Made by a program: the position numbers and the translations under genes | Assembly (NCBI GenBank): GCA_020725105.1 | Contig: DYFQ01000003.1 | Span: 1 to 64,000 of the forward strand | Source: Symbiobacterium thermophilum | GTDB lineage: Bacteria > Bacillota > Sulfobacillia > DYFQ01 | Length of the DNA stretch: 64,000 bases | Direction: 5' to 3' | Shown here: positions 5,480-44,343 of the stretch, one piece after another | Position numbering within the stretch: the first letter of the stretch is position 1 | Layout of the letters: each line of letters opens with the position of its first letter | The notes under the pieces: generated by a model | What the model was told of the DNA's origin: nothing | The model's input: only the letters and a program-made list of their open reading frames with translations | Database searches by the model: none

Positions 5480-6977
5480 ACCGCCGGCCCCGCTCCTCGA
5501 AGTTGCGGAACATGTCGTAGCTGGCGCAGGCCGGCGACAGGAGCACCGCGTCTCCCGGCTCGGCCGCGCCGCGGGCGAGTTCCACCGCCTCGTCGAAGCT
5601 GGAGGCCCTCAGGATGCGGGGGCCGGCTCCCGCTCCCCCGCGCTCGACGGCCGCCCTCACCGCCGCCTCGATCTTGGGAGCCGTCTTCCCCAGCAGCACC
5701 AGGCATTTCACCCGGCCGGCGACGGCCTCGCCCAGTTCGTCGAAGGGGATGCCCTTGTCGTAGCCGCCCGCGACGAGCACCAGCGAGCCCGGTACCGCCG
5801 CCAGGGCCGCCAGGGTCCGGTCGGGCGCGGTGGCGATGGAGTCGTTGTAGTAGCGGACGCCGTCAAGGGTCCGCACCAGTTCCAGCCGGTGCTCCACGCC
5901 ACCGAAGGCGGCGATCACCCTGCCGATGGTGTCCGCCTCCACGCCACAGAGCCTGGCGGCGACGGCGGCGGCCAGGGCGTTCTCCACGTTGTGGGCGCCC
6001 GGAACCTGGATGTCGCCGACCTCCATCACCGTCTCGGGCCCCTGCCCCACGTCGACCACCAGCCGGCCGTCCGCCACCCAGCCGCCGGGCCGGCGGGGGT
6101 TCTCCCGCCCGAACCAGGCCAGGCGGCCCGGAACCTCTTCCGCCAGGCCGGCCACCCGGGGCGAGCCGGCGTTCAGCAGCGCCACGTCGCCCGGCTTCTG
6201 GTACCGGAAGATGCGGGTCTTGGCCGCCACGTAGGCCTCCATGCTCCCGTGAAGGTCCAGGTGGTTGGGGCTCAGGTTCAGAAAGACGGCCAGGTTGGGG
6301 CTCTGGTCCAGTAGCTCCAGCTGGAAGCTGGACAGCTCCAGCACCACCCAGGCGGTGGGCGGGATCCGGAGGACCTCGCCGATGAGCGGCCGGCCGATGT
6401 TCCCCCCGACCAGCACGGGCCCGGGCCCTGCGTCGGGCCTGACGTGCCCCTCCCCCTCCGCCCACGAACCGAAGGCCGCCTCCAGGATCCGGCCGATGAG
6501 CGTGGTGGTGGTGGTCTTGCCGGCGCTACCGGTCACCCCCACCAGCCAGCCCCGGCAAAGCTCGAAGAAGAGCTTCATCTCGCTGGACACCTCGGCCCCG
6601 TCCGCCCGGGCCCGGGCGACGGCGGGAAGGTCCTTGGGCATGCCCGGGGTGAGGAAGACGAGATCGTGGCCGGCCAGTCCGTCCAGGTAGTCCCCACCGA
6701 GAAAGAGGGGTATCCCCATGGCCTCCAGCCGGTCGGCGGTGGCGGCCAGTTCAGCCCGGGGCTTCTTGTCGAAGCCGGCCAGACAAACCGGCGGGTCCAG
6801 GTCCAGGCCCCGCAGGAAATCGATGAGGGCCAGGTTGGAGACGCCCAGCCCGACCACGGCGGCCCGGCGGCCGGCCAGCCGGGCCAGGCTCGCGGCCACC
6901 TCGCCGGCGCTCTTGCGTCCCGCCGGGCTCCAGGGGACCGAAATGTCCCGCACTTCCTTCGTGCCCGCACCCGCCAT
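5451..6977 (-). CDS. murD: UDP-N-acetylmuramoylalanine--D-glutamate ligase
   Basis: 508 aa; 'GVTGSAGKTTTTTLIGRIL', 'NLSPNHLDLHGSMEAYVAAKTRIF', 'YNDSIATAPDRTLAAL'. Confidence 0.93.
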   Translation of the reverse strand: MAGAGTKEVRDISVPWSPAGRKSAGEVAASLARLAGRRAAVVGLGVSNLALIDFLRGLDLDPPVCLAGFDKKPRAELAATADRLEAMGIPLFLGGDYLDGLAGHDLVFLTPGMPKDLPAVARARADGAEVSSEMKLFFELCRGWLVGVTGSAGKTTTTTLIGRILEAAFGSWAEGEGHVRPDAGPGPVLVGGNIGRPLIGEVLRIPPTAWVVLELSSFQLELLDQSPNLAVFLNLSPNHLDLHGSMEAYVAAKTRIFRYQKPGDVALLNAGSPRVAGLAEEVPGRLAWFGRENPRRPGGWVADGRLVVDVGQGPETVMEVGDIQVPGAHNVENALAAAVAARLCGVEADTIGRVIAAFGGVEHRLELVRTLDGVRYYNDSIATAPDRTLAALAAVPGSLVLVAGGYDKGIPFDELGEAVAGRVKCLVLLGKTAPKIEAAVRAAVERGGAGAGPRILRASSFDEAVELARGAAEPGDAVLLSPACASYDMFRNFEERGRRFKAIVRGWS

Positions 6978-7001: not shown

Positions 7002-8198
7002 CTACCGCTCGAGCCCGGCCACCAGGCTCGCCATCCGGTCCATGGCCTCGGCGATGGCCTCGTAGGCCGTGGCGTAAGACAGCCGCAGGAAACGGTCGTC
7101 GCCAAAGGCGACCCCCGGCACCGCCGCGATGCGGCCTTCCTCCAGGAGCCACCCGGCCACGGCCGAGGAACCGTCGAGCACCTTGCCCCGGGCCCGCCGG
7201 CCAAACAGCCCCGACACGTTAGGGTACGCGTAAAAGGCGCCCCGGGGCGTCGGGCAGGTGATGCCGGGCATCGCGTTGAGGCGGTCCACGACCAGCCGGC
7301 GCCGGCGGTCGAACTCCCGCCGCATCTCGGCCACCGGCTCCTGGCTGCCGGTGAGCGCCGCCACGCAGGCCCGCTGGGTGATGGACGAGATGCCGTGCGA
7401 GAGGTGACCCTGCAGGCCGTCCATGGCCCGGATCAGGTCCCGGTCACCGGCGCCGTAACCCATCCGCCAGCCGGTCATGGCGTAGGCCTTGGACACGCCG
7501 TTCACCACCAGCGTCCGCCGCTTGATCTCGGGACCGAGCGACGCGATGGACACGTGCTCGGCCCCGTCGTAGACCAGTTTCTCATAGATCTCGTCGGAGA
7601 ATACCCACAGGTCGTGGCGAACGGCCAGTTCCGCGATGGCCTCCAGGGCCCGGCGCGGGTAGACCGACCCGGCCGGGTTGTTGGGCGAGTTCAGGTTGAT
7701 CACCCGGGTGCGGGGGGTGACCTTCTCGGCGATGGCGTCGGGGTCGGGGACGAAGCCGTCTTCCTCCCGGGTGGGCACGACCACGGGCTCCGCCCCGGCA
7801 AGCTTCACCATTTCCGTATAGCTTACCCAGTAGGGCCCGATGACGATGGCCTCGTCGCCCGGCTCGCAGACGGCCTGGTACGCCTGGTAGAGTACCTGCT
7901 TGGCGCCGTTCGACACCAGAATCTGCGCCGGTTCGTAACTGAGGCCGTTGTCCCGCTCGAGCTTCTCGCAGATGGCCCGGCGGAGTTCGGGAATCCCGGC
8001 CACGGGGGTGTACTTGGTGAAGCCCTCGTTGATGGCCTGGCGGGCGGCTTCCTTGATGAACTCGGGCGTGTCGAAGTCCGGCTCCCCGGCGCCCAGGTTG
8101 ATCACGTCCACGCCCTGGCGGGCCATTTCCTTGGCCCGGGTGTCGATGCCGACGGTGGGTGACGGGCTGATCGCGCGAACCCGGTCGGACAGGTGCAT
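7002..8198 (-). CDS. Pyridoxal phosphate-dependent aminotransferase (aspartate aminotransferase family)
   Basis: 398 aa; 'NLGAGEPDFDTPEFIKEAA', 'NSPNNPAGSVY', 'VNGVSKAYAMTGWRMGY'. Confidence 0.92.
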   Translation of the reverse strand: MHLSDRVRAISPSPTVGIDTRAKEMARQGVDVINLGAGEPDFDTPEFIKEAARQAINEGFTKYTPVAGIPELRRAICEKLERDNGLSYEPAQILVSNGAKQVLYQAYQAVCEPGDEAIVIGPYWVSYTEMVKLAGAEPVVVPTREEDGFVPDPDAIAEKVTPRTRVINLNSPNNPAGSVYPRRALEAIAELAVRHDLWVFSDEIYEKLVYDGAEHVSIASLGPEIKRRTLVVNGVSKAYAMTGWRMGYGAGDRDLIRAMDGLQGHLSHGISSITQRACVAALTGSQEPVAEMRREFDRRRRLVVDRLNAMPGITCPTPRGAFYAYPNVSGLFGRRARGKVLDGSSAVAGWLLEEGRIAAVPGVAFGDDRFLRLSYATAYEAIAEAMDRMASLVAGLER

Positions 8199-8216
8199 TG
8201 AGGCATCGCTCCCTAG

Positions 8217-8978
8217 TCACCATACTTCGTAGGTTGTTCCTTCGACGGACACCTCTGCTTCAGCATACACCGCGCGGGCGGCCCGGCCGACCTCGGCCGG
8301 GTCAAGCAGGGGCAGAAAGTGGGTCAGCAACAGCCGCCGGGCCCCCGCCCGGGCCGCCAGCCGCGCCGCCCCCTCCGCCGTCATGTGCCCTGCCTCGTCG
8401 GCCCGCCCGCCGGCCCAGGCCTCGGTGAAGGTGGCCTCGGCCAGCAACAGGTCGACGCCCTCGAAGAACCCGGCCAGCGCCGGGTCATACGCCGTGTCCG
8501 CCGTGTACCCCAGCCGCCGGCCCCCGGCCTCGATGAGCATGCCCAGGGTGGGAACGGGATGGCGGGTGAGGGTGAAGCGGAACACCAGGTCCCCCACGCC
8601 CAGTTCCCGCCGGGGGTCAACAGGTACGGCGCGCAGGGCCTGGCGGTAGGAGAGCAACCCGAATTCCACGGCCGGTTCGGCGGGCGCGTACACGCAGAGC
8701 GGCCCCGAACGGCGGCCCAGCCGCATCGCCGCGTCGGCGGCGTAGCGCAGGACCAGGACGTCGGAAAAATGGTCGGCGTGGAGGTGGGAAAGGACCACCG
8801 CGTCGAGGCCGTCCAGGCCCGCGGGCCCGCTGGCCGTCCGGCCCAGCCGGGCCACGATTCCCGAACCGCAGTCCACCAGCACCCGGGTGCACGCGGTCTC
8901 CACCAGGTAACCGGGGCAGGCGCCGCCGGGCCGCGGATAAGGCGAGCAGTGGCCGAGCACCGTCAGGCGCAACCCCAT
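8217..8978 (-). CDS. MBL-fold metallo-hydrolase (RNase Z-like)
   Basis: 253 aa; 'VVLSHLHADHFSDV', 'HMTAEGAARLAARAGARRLLLTHFLP'. Confidence 0.88.
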   Translation of the reverse strand: MGLRLTVLGHCSPYPRPGGACPGYLVETACTRVLVDCGSGIVARLGRTASGPAGLDGLDAVVLSHLHADHFSDVLVLRYAADAAMRLGRRSGPLCVYAPAEPAVEFGLLSYRQALRAVPVDPRRELGVGDLVFRFTLTRHPVPTLGMLIEAGGRRLGYTADTAYDPALAGFFEGVDLLLAEATFTEAWAGGRADEAGHMTAEGAARLAARAGARRLLLTHFLPLLDPAEVGRAARAVYAEAEVSVEGTTYEVW

Positions 8979-9051
8979 GCCGGATCACCCCCCTTGGAAA
9001 GCCACCCTGACCAGGGGGGTTCACCGTCGCGCCGGGCAGTCCCTCCGGTGA

Positions 9052-10185
9052 TCAGCCGGCCCGGAACAGGGAGCGCAGCCGCTCGACGAAGCTCTTGCCC
9101 GCGGCCGCCGGCGGGCGCTGTCCGTCACCGGCCACTTCCACCGCCAGCCGCGCGAAGGCGCGACTCGCGGCCGCCTGGGGGTAACCCCACACTACCGGGG
9201 TCTGACGCCTGACCGAGTGGCCTACCGCCGGGTCCTCGGTGATCCAGCCCGCCAGGGGCAGATCGAGGCCGAGGAACCGCCGGGCGGCCTCGCCGACCCG
9301 CGCCGCCGCCGCCCGGGCCTCGTCGGGACCGGACACCCGGTTGAGCACCAGCTTGATGCCGTGCCGCCGCCCGCCCCGGGCCGCCGTCTTGATGAGCGCG
9401 TAGGCGTCCACCAGCGCGGGCGGTTCGGGCGTGGTCACCACCATGACGTCGTCCGCCGCCAGGAAGAAGTTGGTGACGTTCCTGCCGATCCCGGCCCCGG
9501 TGTCCATGATGATGACGTCGGCGTGGGCCTCCAGGGCGCTGAACCCGGCCAGCAGCCGGCCGAACTGCCACTCGGTGAGGTTGGCCACTTCGGGCAGACC
9601 GGAGCCCCCGGGAACGACCCTGAAACCGTAGGGCGTGCCCCGCACCACGTCCATCAGGTCCCGCTCGCCGGCCACGACGTGGGCCAGGGTGGCTTCGGGC
9701 TGGATGCCCAGGAGGACGTCGACGTTGGCGGTCCCCAGGTCGCCGTCGACCAGGACGACCTCCTGCCGCTGGCGGGCCAGGGCCACCGCCAGGTTCACCG
9801 CCACCACGCTCTTGCCCACCCCGCCCTTGCCGCTGGCGACCACCACCACCCGGGCGGCGCGGTCCACCGCGCCCAGCGCCTCGGAAAAGCCGGCCGGGAG
9901 CCGGACGATGACCGAGGGCACGGGTTTCAGGCGCCGCTCCAGGACGGTGGCGACGTGACCGGCCGGGGGGTCCGGTCCCCGGCCGGCCGCGGGCGGCGGG
10001 GTCAGGGTGACCCGGGTGCCCGCGTTCAGCACGGCGACCTTGCCGCCGCTGTATGGCAGTGTCAAGAGGGCCAGCTTGCCGTCGGTGGCCAGGACCTTGA
10101 CCTCCCAGGGCCCCGGGCCGGCGCCGGGAGCGTCGAAGGCTACGCGGAGGGTCCGGTTGGCCAGGGTTGACCCGTCCGTGGGCAT
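9052..10185 (-). CDS. flhG: MinD/ParA-family ATPase, FlhG-like, with N-terminal PilZN/YcgR-N-like domain
   Basis: Deviant Walker A 'ASGKGGVGKSVVAVNLAVALA', 'VDGDLGTANVDVLLGIQPEATLAHVV' typical of FlhG; about 95 aa N-terminal extension resembles the N-terminus of the window's YcgR-like protein. Confidence 0.8.
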   Translation of the reverse strand: MPTDGSTLANRTLRVAFDAPGAGPGPWEVKVLATDGKLALLTLPYSGGKVAVLNAGTRVTLTPPPAAGRGPDPPAGHVATVLERRLKPVPSVIVRLPAGFSEALGAVDRAARVVVVASGKGGVGKSVVAVNLAVALARQRQEVVLVDGDLGTANVDVLLGIQPEATLAHVVAGERDLMDVVRGTPYGFRVVPGGSGLPEVANLTEWQFGRLLAGFSALEAHADVIIMDTGAGIGRNVTNFFLAADDVMVVTTPEPPALVDAYALIKTAARGGRRHGIKLVLNRVSGPDEARAAAARVGEAARRFLGLDLPLAGWITEDPAVGHSVRRQTPVVWGYPQAAASRAFARLAVEVAGDGQRPPAAAGKSFVERLRSLFRAG

Positions 10186-10287
10186 GTGGGTCTTCCTCCT
10201 CGAAACCGTCGGCCAGCGACGCGCGACCGGGGGTCGCGCCCGGCGGGGCGCCGGAAGGCCGGCGTCCCGCCGCTGGGCTCACTGAGC

Positions 10288-10315
10288 ATATCGGCAAGGA
10301 GGCTTCCCGGCTTTA
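10288..10315 (-). promoter_or_regulatory. Putative sigma-28 (FliA/SigD) promoter for the flhG-like gene
   Basis: Minus strand TAAA-N16-GCCGATAT. Confidence 0.7.
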
Positions 10316-10326
10316 GCTGGTGTGGC

Positions 10327-11787
10327 TCAGCGGAGGGCCTGGACTATCCCGGCCACCAGGCCTTCGGCCACCGCCTGGCGGAAGGCGGGGTCCAGGAGCC
10401 GGCGCTCGTCGGCCGGCGAGGACAAAAGCCCCGTCTCGACCAGCACCGCCGGCATGGTGGTGTGGTTCAGGACGTAGTAGCCGGCCGGCCGCGCGCCGCG
10501 GTTGGCGAGCCCCGTCGCCTGGACCAGGCCCTGCTGGATGGCGCGGGCGACGGTAGCGTCCTGGGGTCTGCGCGGGTGGTAGAAGGTGGCGGCCCCGTGC
10601 ACGGAGGGGTCGTCGTACCAGTCGGCGTGAATGCTGACGAACAGCGCCGCCTGGGCCCGGTTGGCCAGGTTCACGCGGGACTGCAGGGGGCCCGCCGAAG
10701 GATCCTGGGGGTCGCGGACGTCGACGTCGGCGTCACGGGTCATGACGACCGTCGCCCCCGCCCGCGCCAGCAGGTCCCCGACCCGGCGGGCCAGGTCCAG
10801 GGTGATCATGGACTCCGCCACGCCGGAGCTCACGCCGTAGGTGCCCGGGTCTCTTCCCCCGTGGCCCGCGTCCACCACGATCACCTTCCCGGCCAGCGGC
10901 TGGTCGGGGTAGGGGTCGGGCGCGGCCTGCCCGCCGGGGATGGTGAGCACCTGGCCGATGTAGATGGTATCGGAGCGGAGCCCGTTGGCCTCCCGGAGCC
11001 GTTCCACCGGGACGCCATACTGCTGGCTGATGGACCAGAGGGTGTCGCCGCGGGCCACGGTGTGCCGGACCGACGCCGCCGGCGCCTCAGCGCCGGCGGC
11101 CTGTGCCGGGGCCGCCGACGCGATCCTGGCCGTGCCGGGGATGGAGAGGGTCTGGCCGACGTAGATGATGTCGGACCGGAGCCCGTTGGCCGCCTTCAGC
11201 GCCTCGACCGTGACCCCGTACCTGATGCCGATCCCCGACAGCGTGTCGCCGGCCTGGACCACGTGGCGTCCCGTCGCCTGGCGGCCGGCCCCCCTCACCG
11301 GCACCTTCAGCGTCTGGCCCGCGTAGATGGTGGTTCCCCGGAGGCCGTTGGCCTCCACAATGGCGGTGACGGTCGTCCCGTACCGCGCGGCGATGGCGAA
11401 CAGGGCCTCGCCCCGCTGGACCACGTGGGTGACGAAGGTAGCGGCGGGGCTATCCAGGACGGCCGCGTCGCGGGTGGGACCGGCGGTGTTGAGCGCCCGG
11501 TAGGTCTGGGCGCCGACAATACCGTCGGCCACCAGGCCCTGCCGGCGCTGAAACGCGATGACGGCCTGCCGGGTGGCGGGGCCGAAGACGCCGTCGGCGG
11601 CCAGCCGGTAGCCCAGGGCGGAGAGGCGCTGCTGCAGTTCCCGGACGTCGCTCCCCCGGTCGCCCGGCCGGAGGATGCGGGTGGCGTAGGCCGCGGTGGC
11701 GGCTCCGGATGGCGGCAGCGTGACCGCCGCCACCGCCGCGATGATGGCCAGAGAAGCAATGAACCGGAGCAGGGTCGGCCGCCCCAC
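10327..11787 (-). CDS. N-acetylmuramoyl-L-alanine amidase with peptidoglycan-binding domain and three LysM repeats
   Basis: 'VIVVDAGHGGRDPGTYG', three LysM units (…NGLRSDTIYIGQVLTIPG), PG_binding_1 'GDRGSDVRELQQRLSALGY'. Start chosen at GTG 11787 before the signal peptide; the ORF extends to 11886. Confidence 0.87.
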   Translation of the reverse strand: MGRPTLLRFIASLAIIAAVAAVTLPPSGAATAAYATRILRPGDRGSDVRELQQRLSALGYRLAADGVFGPATRQAVIAFQRRQGLVADGIVGAQTYRALNTAGPTRDAAVLDSPAATFVTHVVQRGEALFAIAARYGTTVTAIVEANGLRGTTIYAGQTLKVPVRGAGRQATGRHVVQAGDTLSGIGIRYGVTVEALKAANGLRSDIIYVGQTLSIPGTARIASAAPAQAAGAEAPAASVRHTVARGDTLWSISQQYGVPVERLREANGLRSDTIYIGQVLTIPGGQAAPDPYPDQPLAGKVIVVDAGHGGRDPGTYGVSSGVAESMITLDLARRVGDLLARAGATVVMTRDADVDVRDPQDPSAGPLQSRVNLANRAQAALFVSIHADWYDDPSVHGAATFYHPRRPQDATVARAIQQGLVQATGLANRGARPAGYYVLNHTTMPAVLVETGLLSSPADERRLLDPAFRQAVAEGLVAGIVQALR

Positions 11788-11988
11788 TGGCTGGGCACCC
11801 CTTCCACAGGCTACCGGCGCGGAACCCGGCCCCGCGCCGCCGCCGCACCGGGCGGCGCAGGGCCGCTCTTGCCGGAGGCCACCCACACCCCGCTCCGCCT
11901 GCCACTGCTGGGAAGTCCTGACGATGGAGCCACCGTTCGACAGGAAAGACTAAAATCCTCTTCCGGCTGCGGAAAGAGCAGGCGGCAG

Positions 11989-12318
11989 TCACGTCTTGCC
12001 GCCGGCCGACGACACTCGCCCCGTCCCGGGCTCGGCCGGGAGCAGGCCCGCCTCCTTGAGCCGGCGGGTGAGGAGCCCGCCCAGGCGGCCCGACTCGGCC
12101 GCCGTCAGGCCGCCCCACCCCACCTTGCGCACCTTGTCCAGGAGGCCCAGCTCCTCGGCCAGTTCGAACTTGAGCACCTCGGCCGGGTTGTCGGGATCCG
12201 GTTCCAGCTTCTCCTCGGGCTTCCGCTTGCGCTTCTTTCCGGACCTCCCCCGCCCGCCGCCTCCGCCGTCACCGGCGCCGTCCCGATCCGGCTGCTCCAC
12301 TCCGTGAGGCCTGACCAT
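11989..12318 (-). CDS. Small acid-soluble spore protein, alpha/beta-type-like
   Basis: ATG 12318 after GGGGAGGTGGTGGC; 'EVLKFELAEELGLLDKVRKVGWGGLTAAESGRLGGLLTRRLKEAGL' resembles the alpha/beta SASP core with a GPR-type site. Confidence 0.72.
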   Translation of the reverse strand: MVRPHGVEQPDRDGAGDGGGGGRGRSGKKRKRKPEEKLEPDPDNPAEVLKFELAEELGLLDKVRKVGWGGLTAAESGRLGGLLTRRLKEAGLLPAEPGTGRVSSAGGKT

Positions 12319-12462
12319 GCCACCACCTCCCCGGGGTAGTCTCCCCAGCGATTGCCAGCCAATCCAGGACATCTCGCGCCGGCCGCCGGAAAGGAACGCC
12401 GCCCGGTACCCGGTACGGCCGGGCTCCGGGCGGCGACCCCAGAGGTTCAGTCTCGGTTCCGG

Positions 12463-12543
12463 CTACCTCCACTTCAGCCAGGCTCCGCTGGTGAGGACCA
12501 GCGCCGCCAGCACGCCGAGAAGATACAGGGCCCGCCACCGCAA
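12463..12543 (-). CDS. Candidate 26-aa single-TM micropeptide (TTG start)
   Basis: GGGGAGGTGA-CCCGG-TTG then MRWRALYLLGVLAALVLTSGAWLKWR-stop; strong SD. Confidence 0.45.
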   Translation of the reverse strand: MRWRALYLLGVLAALVLTSGAWLKWR

Positions 12544-12588
12544 CCGGGTCACCTCCCCTCAACTCCTGCGCTGCCTCCTCCCCGCGGG

Positions 12589-12623
12589 AAAAGGGGCCCC
12601 CGGGGGGCCTGCCGGCCCCCCGG
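12589..12623 (-). terminator. Putative rho-independent terminator downstream of the HD-GYP gene
   Basis: Minus strand CCGGGGGGCC-GGCA-GGCCCCCCGG followed shortly by TTTT. Confidence 0.6.
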
Positions 12624-12683
12624 AAGGCTAGCGGGGATGGGGGCTGGCGAACTCCTCCAACGCTACGGCCATGTCCACCGGCC

Positions 12684-13883
12684 TCACCGGTCCAGAACTT
12701 CCACGATGAACCTGGTCTGGTGCTCCCTGGCCGCCAGGTCCAGCTTGTAGAAGCTGGTCGGCAGCCGTCCATAGGCGTCCCGGACCACCCGGATCACCGG
12801 GCGGACCAGCGGAATGACCCCGACCTCTTCCACGATGCCCTCTTCCCCCGTGCTGAGCCGCACCTTGGTGCCGACCGGGTAGGGGACCACCGTAGCGCAG
12901 AAGCTTTGAACCAGCTGGTAGTCGAACTCGAAGCCGGCTCCGGCCATGAGAAAGTCCAGCGCCTCGTGGGGCAGCAGGCGGCGGCGGTGAGGCCGGTCCG
13001 ACACCAGCGACGTGTACACGTCGGCCAGCGCCACCAGGCGGGCCGAGACGTGGATCTCCTCGCCGCGCAGGCCCTGAGGGTAGCCGGAGCCGTCGTACCG
13101 CTCGTGATGCTGCAGCGCGATGGCCTTGGCGAAGGGAGAGAACCGCTGGTTCGCCTCGAGGATCCGGACGGTGCCGACGGGGTGCCGCCGGACCAGCTCC
13201 AGTTCCTGACGGGTGAGGCTTCCCGGCTTCCGACGAACCTCCCTGGGCACCAGGGCCATGCCCAGGTCGCAGAGAAGCGCGCCCAGACCGATGTCGAACA
13301 CGCGCAGCCCGAGGCCGTAGTTCTTGGCCAGCGCCATGGACACCACGGCCGTGTTGAGCGAGTGAACCACCAGGTGATCCTTGAGGTACTCCTCAAGGCT
13401 CCGGTGGCTGACCAGATTGACCACCTTGGAGTTGTGGTAGGCCAGGTCAAGCTGGATTTCTTTCACCACCGCCGCGATCTCGCGGTGGGGCAGCTCGACC
13501 TCGTCGGCGGCCCCGGCCGCTTCTACCTGCTCGAAGACGCGCCTCAAGAGGTTGACCGCGGCCCAGCGGGTCTCGTCGGAGATGGGCTCGTCCTTCTGGA
13601 TGGTTCGTTCTTCCCGCCGGGGCGACGCGTGCACGTACACTTCGGGCACGCCAGCTTCCAGCAGCCGCCGGATGTGCTCCGTCGTCAGCTCGCGGCCGTC
13701 GGCGAACAGGTAGACCCCGTCCGAGGTGAACACGGGCCGGGCCAGCCGGGTTCCCGGGGCCAGGCTCGCCGTGGCCACCCGCATGACGGGCCGGGTCTGG
13801 TCGGCGCCCGTCCAGCCGTCCGCCGCCAGATCCGGCTCGCCGGGCTCAAACATGTCGGCCGGCTCGTGTATTGACCGCTGCAT
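12684..13883 (-). CDS. HD-GYP domain protein with degenerate HD motif
   Basis: 'HHERYDGSGYPQGLRGEEIHVSARLVALADVYTSLVSDRPHRR'; expected LLHDIG is LLCDLG. Confidence 0.85.
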   Translation of the reverse strand: MQRSIHEPADMFEPGEPDLAADGWTGADQTRPVMRVATASLAPGTRLARPVFTSDGVYLFADGRELTTEHIRRLLEAGVPEVYVHASPRREERTIQKDEPISDETRWAAVNLLRRVFEQVEAAGAADEVELPHREIAAVVKEIQLDLAYHNSKVVNLVSHRSLEEYLKDHLVVHSLNTAVVSMALAKNYGLGLRVFDIGLGALLCDLGMALVPREVRRKPGSLTRQELELVRRHPVGTVRILEANQRFSPFAKAIALQHHERYDGSGYPQGLRGEEIHVSARLVALADVYTSLVSDRPHRRRLLPHEALDFLMAGAGFEFDYQLVQSFCATVVPYPVGTKVRLSTGEEGIVEEVGVIPLVRPVIRVVRDAYGRLPTSFYKLDLAAREHQTRFIVEVLDR

Positions 13884-14241
13884 CCTGGCTCACCAGCCGT
13901 TCCAGGGAGGCCAGCAACTTCTCGGGCCGGAAGGGTTTCAGGATGAAATCCCTGGCGCCGGCCCGCAGCGCTTCGACGACCATCGTCTGGTGGCCCATGG
14001 CGCTGCAGATGACGATCCTGGCCTGGGGATCCATCCGCCTGATCTCCTTGACCACTTCGATCCCGTCCATGGCCGGCAGCGTGATCTTCAGCAGCCCCAC
14101 GTCCGGCCGCAGGCGCTGGTACCGTTCGAGCGCCTCCTGACCGTCCTCGGCCTCGTCCACCGTGTACCCCCGTTCCCTCAGGAAACGGCTGTACCGGGTG
14201 CGGGTGAAGCGACCGTGGTCCACCAGCAAGATCTTCGCCAT
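13846..14241 (-). CDS. CheY-like response regulator (pseudo-receiver)
   Basis: MAKILLVDHGRFTRTRYSRFL… 'PDVGLLKITLPAMDG' … 'FILKPF'; receiver fold pattern. Confidence 0.85.
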   Translation of the reverse strand: MAKILLVDHGRFTRTRYSRFLRERGYTVDEAEDGQEALERYQRLRPDVGLLKITLPAMDGIEVVKEIRRMDPQARIVICSAMGHQTMVVEALRAGARDFILKPFRPEKLLASLERLVSQDAAVNTRAGRHV

Positions 14242-14331
14242 CACGCATCCCCCGCCGGGCAGGGAGGGTGGCCTCGGCCCCCCGGACCACACCGGCCCGA
14301 CCCTGGGGCCACCCCTTCCCGCCTCCGTCTT

Positions 14332-14840
14332 CTAGTACTCCTCACCCACGATCACCTTGAGAGCCTTCATCGCCTCGGTCCAGAGGATCGAGCCGTCACG
14401 CAGGTACGAGCCGGGCGTCGGCTTGCCTTCGATCTGCAGGATCGACGCTGCCCGCAGCCTGGCCTCGATCCACGGGACGGACTCGATCCACGGGATGCTG
14501 GTCATGTCCACCGTGTTCGAGGTGCCGTCCGGCCGCGTGATCGTGACCAGGTTGGTGTTGTCCCCAAGGTTCGAGTAGACGGGCCGGTAGGCGTCCAGGT
14601 ACCCGGCGCCCTGGACCGTCGCGTCGAAACCCCGGTCCTCGGCCGTCCCCTTCAACCGATTCTTCACCTGGTTGAGGGTGAGGCTCGGGTCGCGTTCCAG
14701 CATGAGCGCGACGGTGCCAGCCGTGAAGTCGGCCGCCTGCCGAACGCCGCGCTCGCCCCCGTGGCCGACCCCAGGCTCAGGAGCACCAGAGACAAGACCA
14801 GTGTCAGCGCCAAAAGCCGCCTGATCTTTTCTCAGGTTCC
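14332..14840 (-). pseudogene. Subtilase (S8 peptidase) remnant: signal-peptide-like segment and C-terminal tail in different frames
   Basis: C-terminal 'ADFTAGTVALMLERDPSLTLNQVKNRLKGTAEDRG' is subtilase-like, but no D/H/S catalytic motifs; 'RRLLALTLVLSLVLLSLGSATGASAA' is readable just upstream in another frame. Confidence 0.6.
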
Positions 14841-14865
14841 GCTCACCTCCCCGCCCAGGATTCCC

Positions 14866-14919
14866 TCAGAGCCACGAGATGATCTTCTCCAGCAGGCCGT
14901 ACAGGAGCCGTTGGAGCAC
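14866..14919 (-). CDS. Candidate 17-aa amphipathic peptide
   Basis: GGGGAGGTGG-AGCCCG-GTG then MLQRLLYGLLEKIISWL-stop. Confidence 0.4.
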   Translation of the reverse strand: MLQRLLYGLLEKIISWL

Positions 14920-15049
14920 CGGGCTCCACCTCCCCATTGCCGCGGGTTGCGCACGGTGGCCACGGAGCCACCTGACGTTCCGGTTGACGCCTGAGCTGGA
15001 CGCATCGCCGGAGCGGAAGGGCCGAATGCTCCCTGACCTCGCCCAGCGA

Positions 15050-15286
15050 TCACCTTCCACTGACGTCGTGCACCAACGCCGCCCGGTGGATGGTCCGGAT
15101 CGTGGTCGGGTCCAGGCCCAGTTCCCGCGCCAGTTCCACGGCGAAGTGCTCCACCCGGGTGGAGTGGCCGTAGGTGTGCGGGTCCTTGGCGTTCACCAGG
15201 TAGGAGAGGGCCCGGATGATTGCCGGGGTCGAACCGCCATCAGCGGTGTCTCTTGTCGGTGGCTCCCGACGGCGCCGGATAATCAT
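15050..15286 (-). pseudogene. Truncated HD/HD-GYP N-terminal fragment
   Basis: 'LSYLVNAKDPHTYGHSTRVEHFAVELARELGLDPTTIRTIHRAALVHDVSGR*' stops at the HD motif. Confidence 0.65.
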
Positions 15287-15301
15287 GGCACCACATACAC
15301 G

Positions 15302-15319
15302 TTGCAAGAGTCGTGCCAG
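15302..15319 (-). promoter_or_regulatory. Sigma-54 (-24/-12) promoter
   Basis: Minus strand CTGGCACGACTCTTGCAA; matches YTGGCACGRNNNTTGCW with 10 bp between GG and GC. Confidence 0.8.
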
Positions 15320-15413
15320 CGGGAAAGCATCCGCCGGACGGCGGGGGTGAGGGAAACTACTGCTAGAAGCCGCGAGGCTCGAGGCTCGGGGGCTGCTCAG
15401 GGGCTCCCGGAGG

Positions 15414-15467
15414 TGTCCGGATTCCGGACATGTCCGGTTTCCGGACACCCTGTCCGGAGACCGGACA
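15414..15467. promoter_or_regulatory. Three tandem 17-bp palindromes, candidate enhancer (UAS) for the adjacent sigma-54 activator
   Basis: TGTCCGGATTCCGGACA (15414-15430), TGTCCGGTTTCCGGACA (15431-15447), TGTCCGGAGACCGGACA (15451-15467). Confidence 0.75.
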
Positions 15468-15469
15468 CT

Positions 15470-17155
15470 CTACCCGGTCAGCCCGTACCGGGAGAGCTTC
15501 TCGTAGAAGCTGGAACGGGCGAGGCCCAGGATGCGGGCGGTCTTGGCCTTGTTCTGGCCGGTGGCTTCCATTATTCGCGCGATCAGGTGGCGTTCCACCG
15601 TGGCGACAATGTCTTCCAGGGTCCCGCCCTCGGCCAGTACGGCTGCCACCTCCGCCACCAGCGCCCGCGGCGCCAGCGGGGCGCTGGCGTCGGGCAGCGG
15701 GTCGCGCCCCGCCGGCTGACGTGTTCCGGCTTCCCCGGTGGCGGGCTGCGGGCGGACCTCCAGCAGCAGGGCGGTCAGGTCGTCCACGGGAAGGTCGGCG
15801 GAGAGGACGGCCGCGTCCCTGACGACCTCGTCGAGGGGCAAGCTCTCGACCAGGTCGCCGCCGACGGCGACACCCTCGGCAGCCTCCCGGCCGTTGCCGG
15901 AGAGATGGGGCCGCAGGGCCTCGGCGGTCATCACCAGCCCGTCCGAGAGGAAGTAGGCGCGCTTCACCACGTTCTCCAGTTCGCGGACGTTACCTGGCCA
16001 GGGCTGCTCGGCCAGCAGTTCCAGAGCGTCGGGGGAAAACTGCTTCCGCAGGCCGGCTGCCGCCCCGGGTCCCCGGTTCAGATCCTCCAGCAGCCGCACG
16101 GCGATGAGGGGGATGTCCTCGCGCCGGTCCCTCAGGGGGGGCAGGGTGATGGTGATGACGGCCAGCCGGTAGTAGAGGTCGTCCCGGAAGCGGCCCCGGG
16201 CCACCATGGCCTCCAGGTCCTGGTTGGTGGCGGCGATGACCCGGACGTCCACGGCGACCGGCCTGAGGCCCCCCACCCGCTCGACCTCCCGCTCCTGCAG
16301 GGCCCGGAGCAGCTTGGACTGGAGCGGCAGCGGGATGTCGGCCACCTCGTCCAGGAACAAAGTCCCGCCGCTGGCCAGTTCGAAACGGCCCGGTTTGCCC
16401 GTCCTGGCCGCGCCGGTGAAGGCGCCGGGCTCGTAGCCAAATAGCTCGGCCTCGAACAGTTCTCCCGGCACGGCCGAGCAGTTGATGGCCACGAACCGGC
16501 CGGCCGAGCGGTCGGACAGGTGGTGTACGGCCCGGGCGAACAACTCCTTGCCCGTGCCGCTCTCCCCTGTCAGGAGCACCGTCAGGTCGGAGCGGGCAGC
16601 CCGGGCGGCCAGACCCTTGGCGTGCCGGATGGCCCGGGAGACGCCTTCGATGCGCTGGAGTCCCCAATCGCCGTCGTCGTCCCCCCTGGCCTTGTTACCT
16701 CCTCTTTCAACCGCCCCGGGCGGGCCGGGTTCCGGCCGCGCCCCGGCTCCTGCCGCCGGGGCCGGGGCCACTTCAGCGGGCGCGAGCTTCACCAGCAGGC
16801 CGTGGCCATTGGGGCCGGCCGGCACCAGGCGTTCCCGGACCAGCCAGGTGCGGCGGCCCAGGACGGCCAGGCCTTCGCTGGTCCTTTTGTCGCCGCCGGC
16901 GCGGCCACCCGCGACGAGGGAGTCTCCCTGCACGTAGGTGAGCAGGCCCAGCAAGGGGCGGCCGACCAACCGGTCGGGTCGCTCCTGGCACGCCCGGGCA
17001 AACGCCTGGTTGGCCCGGATCACCCGTCCCCGTAGGTCGGCGATGCAGATGGGTTCTGGGACCTGGTCGAAGACGGCGGCAAACAGCGCCACCATCCGGT
17101 CGGCCAGTTGCCCTCCCGCCGTCGCGGCGGCCGGCGGAGCAGCCTTCCCGGCCAA
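15470..17155 (-). CDS. PAS domain sigma-54-dependent transcriptional activator (enhancer-binding protein)
   Basis: 'LLTGESGTGKELFARAVH', 'GAFTGA', 'LFLDEVADIPLPLQSKLLRALQ', Fis-type HTH 'NKAKTARILGLARSSFYEKLSRYGL'. TTG start likely at 17155; the ORF extends to 17161. Confidence 0.93.
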   Translation of the reverse strand: MAGKAAPPAAATAGGQLADRMVALFAAVFDQVPEPICIADLRGRVIRANQAFARACQERPDRLVGRPLLGLLTYVQGDSLVAGGRAGGDKRTSEGLAVLGRRTWLVRERLVPAGPNGHGLLVKLAPAEVAPAPAAGAGARPEPGPPGAVERGGNKARGDDDGDWGLQRIEGVSRAIRHAKGLAARAARSDLTVLLTGESGTGKELFARAVHHLSDRSAGRFVAINCSAVPGELFEAELFGYEPGAFTGAARTGKPGRFELASGGTLFLDEVADIPLPLQSKLLRALQEREVERVGGLRPVAVDVRVIAATNQDLEAMVARGRFRDDLYYRLAVITITLPPLRDRREDIPLIAVRLLEDLNRGPGAAAGLRKQFSPDALELLAEQPWPGNVRELENVVKRAYFLSDGLVMTAEALRPHLSGNGREAAEGVAVGGDLVESLPLDEVVRDAAVLSADLPVDDLTALLLEVRPQPATGEAGTRQPAGRDPLPDASAPLAPRALVAEVAAVLAEGGTLEDIVATVERHLIARIMEATGQNKAKTARILGLARSSFYEKLSRYGLTG

Positions 17156-17169
17156 GCTCAACCCTCCTC

Positions 17170-17209
17170 AGGAACAGAAAGAAGCCAGGAACCACCAGCC
17201 TGTCCCTGG
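17170..17209 (-). terminator. Terminator-like hairpin in the leader of the sigma-54 activator gene
   Basis: Minus strand AGCCAGGGACAGGCTGGTGGTTCCTGGCT followed by TCTTTCTGTT. Confidence 0.45.
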
Positions 17210-17386
17210 CTCGAGTACCGTCCCTGGGTGGACCCCCGGCCGTGCTACCCCATCCCCGGATTTGCCGGAGGCTCCACGGTGCCGCTCCTCGGCTACGGAC
17301 ACCTTCCCTGGCCGGTTTGCCGTGTCGGCCCTCGCGGGCCTTTTCCCTCTAACCCTGTTCCACGCCGGCCGTGGCCGCCCGCGGTC

Positions 17387-17767
17387 TCAGGACCGGCGGT
17401 CCACCACCGCCGGCTGCGGGTTACCCCCTCGGAGGCAGGTAAAATAGGCTCGCCCTCCCTGGCGGGCTTGCTCCAGCTTCCGGGAGGCGACCAGCGCCTG
17501 CCTCACGGCCTCCCGGAGCAACGCTTCCCCTTCCCGCTGCAGGGCCAGGAGTTCCCGGGCCACTCCGAGGTCACCCTCGGTCAGGTCGCCCGGCGCCTGG
17601 CCCGTTGCGGGCCGATCGGCGAGCATCAGCCCCAGCCGGGCGATGCCGTCCTCGCGCAGGGCCAGCAACTCCTGGACCTGGTCGGCGTCGGCCACCCGGG
17701 CGGCTTCCACCAGCCGCCTCGATGTCAGGTGCAGCTCCCTGAGCAGCGTCCGCAGGCCCCGGGTCAC
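17387..17767 (-). CDS. fliT: FliT-like flagellar chaperone
   Basis: 126 aa helical protein directly after fliS; synteny. Confidence 0.55.
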   Translation of the reverse strand: MTRGLRTLLRELHLTSRRLVEAARVADADQVQELLALREDGIARLGLMLADRPATGQAPGDLTEGDLGVARELLALQREGEALLREAVRQALVASRKLEQARQGGRAYFTCLRGGNPQPAVVDRRS

Positions 17768-18225
17768 GGTTGCACCTCCCCCGAGGCGCCCGGGGCGACG
17801 GTAACCATCACCCCGGAAGAGCGCTCCTCCTGGTGGGCCGCCCGGTGTGAGGCCCGCAAGCGGGCCACCAGTTCGGTCCAGGTGGCCCGCAGTTCACGGG
17901 TGTACCCGAGCACCTCGGCCACGGGCTCAGGATCCTTTCTGAGGTTCGCCTCCACGAGCCGCCGCTGCATGTACGCGTACAGGGCGTCCAGGTTCCCGGC
18001 GACGGCTCCGGCGTCGGCGTTGAGGGCGCCCTGGAGTTCCTGGATGATGCCCTGGGCCCTGACGATGGCCGCCGAGGCCCGGTCGTGCCTGGCTTCCTCG
18101 AGGGCGGCCAGGGCCATGCTCAACCGGGTGACCAGGCCGTCAAAGGCCAGCAGCACCAACCCCTCCGGAGTGGACGTCTGCACCTGGGTGAGTCTGTACT
18201 GCTCGTACGGGCTGGGCGTGGCCAT
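17764..18225 (-). CDS. fliS: Flagellar export chaperone FliS
   Basis: 'PYEQYRLTQVQTSTPEGLVLLAFDGLVTRLSMA'; ATG 18225 behind CCAGGGAGGG. Confidence 0.88.
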   Translation of the reverse strand: MATPSPYEQYRLTQVQTSTPEGLVLLAFDGLVTRLSMALAALEEARHDRASAAIVRAQGIIQELQGALNADAGAVAGNLDALYAYMQRRLVEANLRKDPEPVAEVLGYTRELRATWTELVARLRASHRAAHQEERSSGVMVTVAPGASGEVQP

Positions 18226-18304
18226 TGTGGTACTCCCTCCCTGGAGTCCTCGAGTGTCCCCGCCTGGATACTGAACGCCGCTCAGCAACGGCACCTCGCT
18301 ATCT

Positions 18305-18332
18305 GTGTCGGCAACCGCAACCCAAAACTTGA
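18305..18332 (-). promoter_or_regulatory. Weak putative sigma-28 promoter upstream of fliS
   Basis: Minus strand TCAA-N16-GCCGACAC; same spacing as stronger copies. Confidence 0.35.
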
Positions 18333-18376
18333 ACGCTGACCGGGGCGCGCCGGCCCGGCCCGGGCGCGAAGGCCGC

Positions 18377-20320
18377 CTAGAACGTGCTCCGCTGATTCTG
18401 GAACAGGGCCTGCAACCGGAGGGCCAGGAGGTTTCCCTGCGCCTGCAGCTGCGACAGGGCCTGCTCCATGGTGGTGAACTGCCGCACCAGGTTGCGCTCG
18501 CGGATGGCCAGCCGGTTCTCCCAGGCGTCGATCATCTGCTCCAGGTCCTTTGACCGCCGGTCGTAACTGTCGACCCGCTCGGGGATGATCCCGCCGCTGT
18601 TCACGTAGAGGTCAACCGTGTCGCGGACGATCTCGCCCACGCCCCGGACGCCGTCGGACGCGTCGTAGAAGACCTTCTTCACCTGGTCGGGCCTGGCGGC
18701 CAGCAATGCGTCCAGGGCGGCCGTGTCCACCGCCAACAGGCCGGAGGTGTCGGAAGTCTTGATCCCCAGGTCCACCAGCTCGTTCAGTTCGGAGTCGGCG
18801 ATGCCCCCGGCCTTGGAGGAGGCGGCCTTGCGCAGGGCCGCCTGCAGCCGGGCCGCCGTGGGGTCAGCTTCCAGCCGGCCGTCCCGGGCCACGTATCCGT
18901 TGAGGGTGGTCATGAAGTCGTTGTAGGCGCTGACGAAGGCCTCGATCTTGGCCCTGGGGACCGCCGCGTCCCGGGCGATCCTCAACTCCACCGCCGTTGC
19001 CGAGGTGCCCTCAAGGTACAGGGTCACGCCCGTGACGACGTCGTCGATGGTGTTGGTGGACCGGGTGACGGTGACGCCGTCCACGGTGAAGCCGGCGTCC
19101 TGGGCCGCGGCCACCTGGTTGGCGATGGCGTCGCTGCCGTTGAGAATGCCCAGCCCCTTCAGCACCCCGGCATAGCGGACGTACAGATCCACCTGGCCGT
19201 TGCCGGCCAGGGTCAGGGTCACGCCGGTCATGCCCGACTCGCCGTCGGTGACGGTGTTGTCCGACGAGGTCAGGGTGGCGCCCCCGTTCACCGTGAACCG
19301 GGCGTCCTGGGCCGCCTGGTCCACCGTGTCGACGCCGGCCCACTGGCTGAGGGCGGTGGACTGCACGGTGAAGGCGTAGGCCGCTCCCGTGGGCGTGGAA
19401 CTCAGCACCAGGCGGCTCTGGCCGCCGGAACTTTCCACGGTGGCAGTGATGTTGCCGAAGCCCGCCTCGTCTATCTTGGTCTTTATGGCATCCAGCACCT
19501 GGCGGTTGGTTTCGGTGCCCGCCAGGTTGACGGTTATGGTCGTCGGCGTGCCGCCCTGAGTGATGTCAAAGCTGTAGGCGCCTGAGGTGAATCCGGCCGG
19601 ATCGGTGTCGGTCTTCCAGTCGCCTGCGTTCTGCTGGGCCTGAGCCACTTGCAGCACGTTGACGGTGTAGTTCGCCTCGGTGGCCAGGTCAGAGGCGGTC
19701 GCCGTCAGCACCGACTGGTCCGCCGGGTCGTAGTAGACGGTCCTGGCCGCCCCGGCGGTGGAATCGGTGAAGCTGATGGCGTACCGGGCACCCGTATGGT
19801 CGGCCTGGATGACCAGGCACCCGTCGACGATGGAAGCCGTCACCCCGGCCCCGGCGTTGTTGATCTTGTCCCGGATGCCGGCCAGGGTATCGGACTTGAC
19901 CACCGACACCGACTTCGTCGCGCCGTCCACCGTGATGTCGAAGGTTCCCTCGTACCAGAGGGCGGTGGTGGTCGAGGCGAACCGGCTACCCCGGACCTTG
20001 TGGGCCTGGGCCAGCTGGCTGACGGTAATGGAGTAGGTCGCCTCCGCCGCGCTCGAGGTGGCCGAGGCGGTGAGCACGGCCTCGTCGGAAGAGGTGGCCG
20101 TCTTGGCGCCCCAGACGCTGTCCAGGCGCAGGGCGTCCAGGGCCGCCTGAACGCTCACCAGCTTGGTCTTGACCGTGGTCCAGCTGTCCTTGAGCCCGGC
20201 CAGGGCGTCCTTCCTGGCCTGCAGCCGGACCACCGGCCGCCGCTCGATGGCCATCAGTTCCTGGATCAACCGGCGCGTGTCGATGCCCGACGCCAGCCCG
20301 CTGATGCTGAAGAGCGCCAT
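18377..20320 (-). CDS. fliD: Flagellar hook-associated protein 2 (filament cap)
   Basis: 'MALFSISGLASGIDTRRLIQELMAIERRPVVRL' N-terminus; C-terminal coiled coil. Confidence 0.93.
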   Translation of the reverse strand: MALFSISGLASGIDTRRLIQELMAIERRPVVRLQARKDALAGLKDSWTTVKTKLVSVQAALDALRLDSVWGAKTATSSDEAVLTASATSSAAEATYSITVSQLAQAHKVRGSRFASTTTALWYEGTFDITVDGATKSVSVVKSDTLAGIRDKINNAGAGVTASIVDGCLVIQADHTGARYAISFTDSTAGAARTVYYDPADQSVLTATASDLATEANYTVNVLQVAQAQQNAGDWKTDTDPAGFTSGAYSFDITQGGTPTTITVNLAGTETNRQVLDAIKTKIDEAGFGNITATVESSGGQSRLVLSSTPTGAAYAFTVQSTALSQWAGVDTVDQAAQDARFTVNGGATLTSSDNTVTDGESGMTGVTLTLAGNGQVDLYVRYAGVLKGLGILNGSDAIANQVAAAQDAGFTVDGVTVTRSTNTIDDVVTGVTLYLEGTSATAVELRIARDAAVPRAKIEAFVSAYNDFMTTLNGYVARDGRLEADPTAARLQAALRKAASSKAGGIADSELNELVDLGIKTSDTSGLLAVDTAALDALLAARPDQVKKVFYDASDGVRGVGEIVRDTVDLYVNSGGIIPERVDSYDRRSKDLEQMIDAWENRLAIRERNLVRQFTTMEQALSQLQAQGNLLALRLQALFQNQRSTF

Positions 20321-34878: not shown

Positions 34879-35574
34879 TTACAAAAGCCCCTTCTTTCGC
34901 AGTTCGCGCTGCTGCTGGAAGACGAAGTTCACCAGGTAGTGCTGCTCCTTGAGCTCAAGGCCCAGAAAGTTCACGCCCAGGGCCACCACGTCCGGCCCCA
35001 GTTCCGGGGGCGCCGGCTCTCGCCGGACCACCTCCCCCAGCGCCAGAAAGCACTCGCCCGGCCGGAGTTCGACCTCGAGTTCCACGATGGTGCCGCGGGG
35101 CAGCGGCGCGCTGGTCAGCACGTGGGCCCCGCCGGCGGAGACGTCGCGCGTGCGGCCGTGATGGCAGGCCAGCCCCTCTTCGGCAGCGGCCTCTTCGCCG
35201 GGCAGCGCCAGCACCCGGAGCCTGACCGGCAGGCTCAGGGCCAGACGGACAAACTCACGGCGCTGGATGCGAACCACTTGCTCCGGCCGCTCCAGCTCCA
35301 GCTGGGGCGCGGGACGCAGAATGCGTCCCCGCACCCGGGTGACAAACCGGTATAGCGCCGCGTCGTCAGCGTAGGCCACCTCCACCGGCGTTCCCCGCGG
35401 CAGGTCGACCAGCGCCCCCTCCGCCGTAGGGTGGGCCACGACGATGGCTTGCCGGTTCACGTCCTCGACCCGGCTGGCAAGGGACTGGCGCCGGCCGTCC
35501 CCTCCCACCGCCACGCGCAGTTGCAGCCGCTGGTTCACCAGGATGTCGCGAAAGGGGACGATCTCCCGGTTCAC
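34879..35574 (-). CDS. ycgR: PilZ domain flagellar brake protein (YcgR/YpfB-like)
   Basis: PilZN plus PilZ: 'QRREFVRLALSLPVRLRV' and 'TRDVSAGGAHVLTSAPLPRG'; GTG 35574 overlaps the flhF stop. Confidence 0.88.
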   Translation of the reverse strand: MNREIVPFRDILVNQRLQLRVAVGGDGRRQSLASRVEDVNRQAIVVAHPTAEGALVDLPRGTPVEVAYADDAALYRFVTRVRGRILRPAPQLELERPEQVVRIQRREFVRLALSLPVRLRVLALPGEEAAAEEGLACHHGRTRDVSAGGAHVLTSAPLPRGTIVELEVELRPGECFLALGEVVRREPAPPELGPDVVALGVNFLGLELKEQHYLVNFVFQQQRELRKKGLL

Positions 35575-43359: not shown

Positions 43360-44343
43360 CTAGCCCTCCTCCCCGCCTGAAACCACTTCCGTTACCTGTA
43401 CGGCCAGGCGGTTGGACACGGTGCCCGGCCGGCCGCGAAACTTCTCCTCGTCCTCGACGAACACCGAGACCTCGTCGTCCAGGTTGGAGTCGAGCGGGAC
43501 GACGTCGCCCACCTCCAGGTTCAGCAGGTCCCGGACGGTGATCTCCGTCCGGCCCAGCTCGGCCCGGATGGAAACCATGACCTGCCCCAGCCGGCGGCGC
43601 AGGGAGTCGCGGATGTGGGCCGGGGTTTCGCGCTTGGTGGCGGCGAACCACTGCTGCACCGAGAGCCGGGGTAGCACCGGTTCCAGGACCACGTAGGGGA
43701 TGCAAACGTTGATGGCGCCCCGCTGATCGCCGATGCGGGCCGAGAGCGAGATGACGATGCAACTGTCCGACGGCGAGACCACCTGGATGAAGAGGGGGTT
43801 GGATTCCACCGCCTCCAGCTTGGGCCGGAGTTCCACGATGTTCTTCCAGCCGTCGGCCAGGTTTGCCAGGATCCCCCGTACCACCCGCTCGATGGCCGTC
43901 TCCTCGATCTCCGTGAGGGCGCGGGCCTTTTCCTGGCCCTGCCCCAGGCCGCCGAAGAGCCGGTCCACCATGGGAAAGGCGATGGAGGGCTGGATCTCGA
44001 TGATGGCGTTGCCCTCGAGGGGTGCCAGGCCCACCACGGCGGTGACCGCCGGGTTGGGCACCGCCCGGATGAACTCACCGAAGGTCAGCTGGTCGACGGA
44101 TTCCACGGTGAACTGCACCATGGTCCTGAAGTTGGCGGAGAAATAGGTGGTCAGCATCCGGGCCACGTTGTCGTGAAGCATCTGCATGGTCCGGATCTGA
44201 TCCTTGGAGAACTTGTCCGGGCGCCGGAAATCGTAGAGCCTGACCGGCCGGTCCTCGATCCTGGCCTCGTCGGCCCGGACGTCGCCGGCCGTCAGCCCTT
44301 CGATCAGGGCGTCGATTTCTCGCTGCGTCAGGATCTCGGTCAA
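43360..44343 (-). CDS. fliM: Flagellar motor switch protein FliM
   Basis: 'LTQREIDALI', 'YDFRRPDKFSKDQIRTMQMLHDNVARMLTTYFSANFRTMVQ'. Confidence 0.97.
   Translation of the reverse strand: MTEILTQREIDALIEGLTAGDVRADEARIEDRPVRLYDFRRPDKFSKDQIRTMQMLHDNVARMLTTYFSANFRTMVQFTVESVDQLTFGEFIRAVPNPAVTAVVGLAPLEGNAIIEIQPSIAFPMVDRLFGGLGQGQEKARALTEIEETAIERVVRGILANLADGWKNIVELRPKLEAVESNPLFIQVVSPSDSCIVISLSARIGDQRGAINVCIPYVVLEPVLPRLSVQQWFAATKRETPAHIRDSLRRRLGQVMVSIRAELGRTEITVRDLLNLEVGDVVPLDSNLDDEVSVFVEDEEKFRGRPGTVSNRLAVQVTEVVSGGEEG

What the first reader, a model, noticed from the sequence alone, without database searches (positions are those of the whole stretch)
14332..17161. Self-contained sigma-54 regulatory module with an unusual, apparently decayed target operon
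Read on the minus strand: a PAS/AAA+/Fis-type enhancer-binding protein gene (GAFTGA motif present) ends at 15470. Two bp later three tandem palindromes begin. About 95 bp beyond their last edge is a consensus -24/-12 element CTGGCACGACTCTTGCAA (15302-15319). The transcript starting near 15293 covers an HD-domain fragment, a 17-aa amphipathic peptide ORF and a subtilase remnant. Activator, enhancer, promoter and target lie in one compact block inside a flagellar/c-di-GMP neighbourhood. I know of no described system with this target set.
Basis: partly seen in the sequence, partly recalled or inferred. Interest (0 to 1): 0.8.

Follow-up and report, generated by a model that had tools for sequence, protein, structure and literature searches.

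The report
Intact sigma-54 switch, wrecked c-di-GMP operon
In a flagellated spore-forming bacterium, the only sigma-54 activator in the genome sits beside its binding sites and its promoter, all intact, but the operon they once controlled (a c-di-GMP-sensing RNA switch, a c-di-GMP-making and -breaking enzyme, and a secreted protease, still present in related genomes) has been largely deleted.

Summary
On the minus strand an intact PAS/AAA+/Fis activator (15470-17155) is followed by three perfect TGTCCGG-N3-CCGGACA palindromes and a consensus -24/-12 promoter. The genome has one rpoN, one true sigma-54 activator, one such promoter and no other perfect palindromes. Two related genomes (G023, G062) keep the ancestral locus in the same flagellar context: activator, two similar palindromes, sigma-54 promoter, a c-di-GMP-I riboswitch, an 818/819-aa membrane GAF-GGDEF-HD-GYP gene and, in G062, an 18-codon ORF and a secreted subtilase, then a terminator and the che operon. 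In the window the riboswitch, membrane, GAF and GGDEF parts, most of the HD-GYP domain, most of the subtilase, the terminator and six che genes are gone. The HD fragment (52 residues, 65-67% identical) and the subtilase end are remnants. The promoter now faces an altered cheY and an HD-GYP gene with no terminator predicted between. Whether the circuit is a fresh relic or now drives cheY/HD-GYP is open. The riboswitch-gated sigma-54 module in the relatives is a new variant of known parts.

The parts
15470..17155 (-). sigma-54 enhancer-binding protein (PAS, AAA+ with GAFTGA, Fis-type HTH); the only true one in the genome
   Evidence: Pfam; whole-genome PF00158 search, where the other two hits are weak generic AAA matches; motif check
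15414..15467 (.). enhancer: three perfect palindromes TGTCCGG-N3-CCGGACA (TGT-N11-ACA class) at 15451-15467, 15431-15447 and 15414-15430
   Evidence: two similar sites at the same place in G023 and G062
15302..15319 (-). -24/-12 promoter CTGGCACGACTCTTGCAA; transcription start predicted at about 15292
   Evidence: counterparts TTGGCACGCCTCTTGCT in G023 and TTGGCACGGGTCTTGCT in G062
15062..15217 (-). remnant (52 codons) of the HD-GYP domain of an ancestral MASE9-like/GAF/GGDEF/HD-GYP gene; the riboswitch and about 627 codons upstream, and about 139 codons downstream, are missing
   Evidence: 65-67% identity to residues 629-680 (G023) and 628-679 (G062)
14866..14919 (-). 17-codon amphipathic ORF (GTG start) in the position of an 18-codon ORF of G062; status uncertain
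   Evidence: sequence; hydrophobic moment and weak similarity against shuffles, p about 0.03
14739..14831 (-). signal-peptide-like remnant of a secreted subtilase; no ATG/GTG/TTG at its start and out of frame with the C-terminal remnant
   Evidence: translation in three frames
14332..14748 (-). C-terminal remnant of the subtilase without catalytic residues, keeping SI(P/L)W-type repeats
   Evidence: 37% identity over 129 residues to the intact G062 subtilase, E=4e-19; alignment; T7SS mycosin model E=2e-6
13846..14241 (-). cheY-like receiver with the phospho-acceptor Asp replaced by Lys and the acidic pair DD changed to DH; first intact gene downstream of the promoter
   Evidence: Pfam Response_reg; alignment to CheY of G023 and G063
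12684..13883 (-). HD-GYP protein with CDLGM in place of HDLGM; second gene in reach of the promoter
   Evidence: Pfam; 40% identity to the G023 orthologue

Best explanation
This is a self-contained sigma-54 control unit whose original target operon has been deleted down to remnants. Inferred ancestral mechanism: the activator, encoded after flaG-fliD-fliS-fliT, senses something through its N-terminal domain, binds TGT-N11-ACA palindromes behind its own gene, and by looping and ATP hydrolysis opens sigma-54 RNA polymerase at the -24/-12 promoter. The transcript first passes a c-di-GMP-I riboswitch with a terminator-like hairpin and then encodes a membrane GAF-GGDEF-HD-GYP enzyme and, in G062, a secreted subtilase, so that one operon for c-di-GMP turnover is gated both by an activator and by c-di-GMP itself. 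In the window lineage, deletions removed the riboswitch, almost all of the enzyme, the subtilase catalytic part, the terminator and cheW, A, C, D, B and R. The activator, its sites, the promoter and rpoN stayed intact, and the promoter now reads into an altered cheY and an HD-GYP gene. Shown: anatomy, homology, losses, uniqueness in the genome. Inferred: binding, transcription, riboswitch gating and present function.
For: Same gene order in G023 and G062: FlaG, FliD, FliS, activator, palindromes, promoter, HD gene, che genes. Domains of the intact enzyme and subtilase and intact GGDEF, HDIGK and HHxExxDGxGYP motifs. Riboswitch between promoter and enzyme in both relatives, E=4.5e-16 and 4.9e-15. 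Remnant alignments. One rpoN, one activator, one consensus promoter, three perfect palindromes all at this spot. No CheW-domain match in the genome. Strong terminators after the operon in both relatives and none in the window up to HD-GYP. The HD remnant differs from its relatives about twice as much as they differ from each other, the same ratio as FliS, the activator and HD-GYP, which points to recent decay of a formerly constrained gene.
Against: The window genome is a 73-contig assembly and no sister species was available, so the deletions rest on one assembly. Only two relatives carry the intact locus, both of another family. Transcription, binding and riboswitch function are untested.
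Confidence: 0.82

Rival explanations
1. Live, rewired circuit: deletion of the old operon and its terminator put the altered cheY and the HD-GYP gene under the sigma-54 promoter, and selection on that new output keeps activator, enhancer, promoter and rpoN intact.
For: All motifs of the activator are intact and the enhancer has three perfect sites where the relatives have one good and one weaker site. rpoN would have no other activator to serve. No sigma-70 type promoter was found in 8000-18500 and the only sigma-28-like site lies at 10315; no terminator before cheY. In G063, where the target was cleanly deleted, the activator carries GAFIGA and has lost the YYRL arginine, which suggests that an activator without a target decays.
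Against: The decay looks recent, so intact regulators may simply not have had time to decay. CheY and HD-GYP themselves have altered catalytic residues. They may be transcribed by read-through from the fliD operon.
Confidence: 0.45
2. Fresh relic: target lost recently, the activator, enhancer, promoter and rpoN are about to decay and do nothing useful now.
For: The HD remnant still has the conservation and GC3 pattern of a constrained gene; chemotaxis genes and c-di-GMP catalytic residues are being lost in this lineage; the same operon decays repeatedly (subtilase stub in G023; whole target gone in G063).
Against: Every element of the control unit, including rpoN, is undamaged, and the enhancer is better than in the relatives.
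Confidence: 0.4
3. The activator's real targets are elsewhere in the genome, with weaker promoters, and this promoter is only one of several.
For: Sites with one mismatch to TGGCAC-N5-TTGCA exist (23 in the genome), and one near-palindrome lies at 44214-44230 in the window.
Against: Those counts do not exceed the reversed-pattern control. YTGGCAC-N5-TTGCW occurs once only.
Confidence: 0.12
4. The gaps are assembly errors and the operon is intact in the organism.
For: The window lies in a draft assembly.
Against: Several independent lesions (5' and 3' deletion of the HD gene, subtilase deletion with frame change, loss of terminator and six che genes); no CheW anywhere in an assembly 96.8% complete; no second copy of the enzyme.
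Confidence: 0.06

Closest known systems
Single-operon sigma-54 activators next to their target in Clostridiales (regulons reconstructed in PMC6615313)
   Same: PAS-type activator with Fis HTH, TGT-N10-12-ACA type sites upstream of a TTGGCA-N6-TTGCT-like promoter, one adjacent target operon
   Different: Target (in relatives) is a c-di-GMP enzyme behind a c-di-GMP riboswitch in a flagellar cluster; that paper's main text has no mention of GGDEF, diguanylate, riboswitch or motility. In the window the target is gone.
c-di-GMP-I (GEMM-I) riboswitches upstream of flagellar or c-di-GMP genes, e.g. in Clostridioides difficile (own knowledge)
   Same: Aptamer upstream of a c-di-GMP turnover gene or flagellar operon, possible transcription terminator downstream
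   Different: In the relatives the leader is transcribed from a sigma-54 promoter with its own activator; no paper in the searched library holds 'c-di-GMP riboswitch', 'sigma-54' and 'enhancer-binding protein' together
Flagellar sigma-54 activators FleQ/FlrC/FlgR/FlbD (own knowledge; NCBIfam models FlgR and FlbD matched only through the AAA+ domain, below cut-off)
   Same: sigma-54 activator within a flagellar gene cluster
   Different: No receiver domain; does not sit upstream of flagellar structural operons with sigma-54 promoters; its promoter serves a c-di-GMP enzyme

Membership tests
sigma-54 enhancer-binding protein | AAA+ domain with Walker A, GAFTGA, Walker B, arginine finger region; Fis-type HTH | tested here: met
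sigma-54 enhancer-binding protein | cognate rpoN in the genome | tested here: met
sigma-54 enhancer-binding protein | upstream palindromic sites of the TGT-N10-12-ACA type, conserved with the HTH in orthologues | tested here: met
   motif class from PMC6615313
sigma-54 promoter | YTGGCAC-N5-TTGCW | tested here: met
sigma-54 promoter | transcription start about 12 nt after the GC element, dependent on RpoN | not testable with these tools
   needs 5' RACE or dRNA-seq
HD-GYP phosphodiesterase (remnant at 15062-15217) | HDxGK and HHxExxDGxGYP motifs in one open frame | tested here: not met
   the fragment ends at the HD residues; motifs intact in G023 and G062
S8 subtilase (remnant) | catalytic Asp/His/Ser domain behind a signal peptide | tested here: not met
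   only a signal-peptide-like stretch and the C-terminus remain, in different frames; G062 copy matches PF00082, E=2e-52
c-di-GMP-I riboswitch in the leader | Rfam RF01051/RF03167 aptamer between promoter and first gene | tested here: not met
   absent at this locus in the window; present in both relatives
CheY receiver (13846-14241) | phospho-acceptor aspartate | tested here: not met
   Lys in its place; fold-level match to Response_reg kept

The most novel reading that the evidence does not exclude
A deletion has captured two downstream genes for a sigma-54 circuit: the genome's only sigma-54 activator, with an improved triple enhancer, now drives a phosphorylation-independent CheY and a modified HD-GYP protein in a flagellated bacterium that has lost its chemotaxis kinase, replacing an ancestral operon gated by both an activator and a c-di-GMP riboswitch.
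Probability: 0.35. Interest if true: 0.65.

Novelty: new variant of a known kind. Interest (0 to 1): 0.5.

Why it matters
In the relatives, one operon for making and breaking c-di-GMP is placed under two locks, a dedicated sigma-54 activator and a c-di-GMP riboswitch; I found no description of this pairing in the searched papers. The window shows what happens when the target is lost while rpoN has just one activator left: a minimal, one-activator, one-promoter sigma-54 genome in which the fate of an orphaned circuit (decay or rewiring) can be tested directly, with G063 as a natural comparison where the orphaned activator has already lost its sigma-54-contacting motif.

Tried and rejected
A c-di-GMP-like leader just upstream of the activator (17200-17340) was suspected by eye; Rfam gave no such match. 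Weak Rfam hits at the palindromes (mir-BART7, mir-8521) are hairpin look-alikes. Searching for sisters with the activator in GTDB genome contigs found only AAA+ paralogues or distant homologues, none in this gene context. Other near-palindromes in the window genome are no more frequent than the reversed control, and extra sites in G062 and G063 have no good sigma-54 promoter beside them. My first translation of the cheY gene was out of frame (13849-14242), so its 'REC' rows and the CheY block are artefacts; searches are correct. The short ORF as a real peptide gene was kept only as suggestive: similarity p about 0.03, and in G023 it is reduced to four codons.

Full report
Observation. On the minus strand the activator gene runs from about 17155 to 15470 and encodes PAS, sigma-54 AAA+, lid and Fis-type HTH domains with all catalytic motifs, GAFTGA included. 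Three perfect TGTCCGG-N3-CCGGACA palindromes begin 2 bp after the stop codon and a consensus -24/-12 element lies at 15302-15319. In the whole 2.74-Mb assembly there is one rpoN (477-codon frame with RpoN box), one true activator, one YTGGCAC-N5-TTGCW, and no perfect palindrome elsewhere. Neither the array nor the promoter appears in 3000 dinucleotide shuffles of the same 178 bp. The palindromes fit the TGT-N10-12-ACA class of activator sites described for Clostridiales (PMC6615313).

What the target was. FliS was used as an anchor to find the locus in other genomes of the class, and 40 loci were fetched. G023, G062 and G063, all of one family, have the activator after fliD-fliS-(fliT). In G023 and G062 it is followed by two TGTCCGG-type palindromes about 80 bp apart, a promoter TTGGCACGCCTCTTGCT or TTGGCACGGGTCTTGCT, a c-di-GMP-I riboswitch and an 819/818-aa gene with MASE9-like membrane, GAF, GGDEF and HD-GYP domains, with GGDEF and HD-GYP motifs intact. 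In G062 an 18-codon ORF overlaps the stop codon and a secreted subtilase with TILWSD repeats follows. G023 keeps only a stub of the subtilase. Both have a strong terminator before cheW. Behind the aptamer in G062 the fold predicts a long GC-rich hairpin followed by TTTATTGTT, so transcription attenuation is plausible but not shown.

What is left in the window. The HD fragment is codons 628-679 of that enzyme (65-67% identity) with nothing recognisable on either side. A signal-peptide-like stretch and the C-terminus of the subtilase are in different frames. The riboswitch is absent. Downstream, cheY and an HD-GYP gene are kept, while cheW, A, C, D, B and R are missing from the cluster, and no CheW-domain protein exists in the assembly. 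The CheY has Lys instead of the phospho-acceptor Asp, and the HD-GYP protein has CD instead of HD. No full-length copy of the enzyme exists elsewhere in the genome; other HD-GYP genes are at most 44% identical to the fragment.

When. Divergence between window and relatives, relative to that between the relatives, is about twofold for the HD remnant, FliS, the HD-GYP protein and the activator, but nearly fourfold for CheY. The remnant therefore evolved as a constrained gene until recently, and CheY changed faster.

Function now. Two readings remain. Either the circuit is a fresh relic, or it now drives cheY/HD-GYP, because no terminator and no sigma-70- or sigma-28-type promoter was found between the sigma-54 promoter and those genes. 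G063 lost the whole target (activator directly to cheW), and its activator has GAFIGA and DLYHHL instead of GAFTGA and DLYYRL, so an orphaned activator does appear to decay there. The window's does not show this. I put 0.45 on rewiring and 0.40 on a relic.

Novelty. One activator with one adjacent operon is the common arrangement (PMC6615313). The pairing of a dedicated sigma-54 activator with a c-di-GMP riboswitch in front of a GGDEF-HD-GYP enzyme was not found in the searched papers, with the limit that the library is partial. The enzyme orthologue was seen in only two of 154 genomes of the class.

Noticed in passing
window 58180-58276 and 58379-58472, minus strand: Two c-di-GMP-I riboswitches in tandem (RF03167 and RF01051) directly upstream of the flgB-like gene (57652-58077), flgC-like gene and fliF, so the main flagellar operon is also predicted to be under c-di-GMP control.
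   Followed up: partly
window 13846-14241: Receiver protein related to CheY with Lys in place of the phospho-acceptor Asp and DH in place of the DD pair, in a genome without any CheW-domain match: a flagellated but apparently non-chemotactic organism.
   Followed up: partly
window 12684-13883: HD-GYP protein with CDLGM where its relatives have HDLGM.
   Followed up: no
L175 (G063) 5537-6829: Activator orthologue without its target operon carries GAFIGA and DLYHHL instead of GAFTGA and DLYYRL: probably an activator in decay.
   Followed up: yes
L247, L248, L250 (G063, G023, G062): Further consensus sigma-54 promoters in the relatives each lie directly behind another activator gene; behind two of them (L247, L250) the next gene looks like a solute-binding protein.
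   Followed up: no
window 11992-12372: A small acid-soluble spore protein gene lies between the HD-GYP gene and a LysM/amidase gene at the end of the flagellar cluster.
   Followed up: no
window 9052-10185 and 10315: MinD/FlhG-like ATPase with an extra N-terminal region of about 100 residues, set apart from the flhF-like gene (35574-36683) and preceded by a sigma-28-like site at 10315.
   Followed up: no
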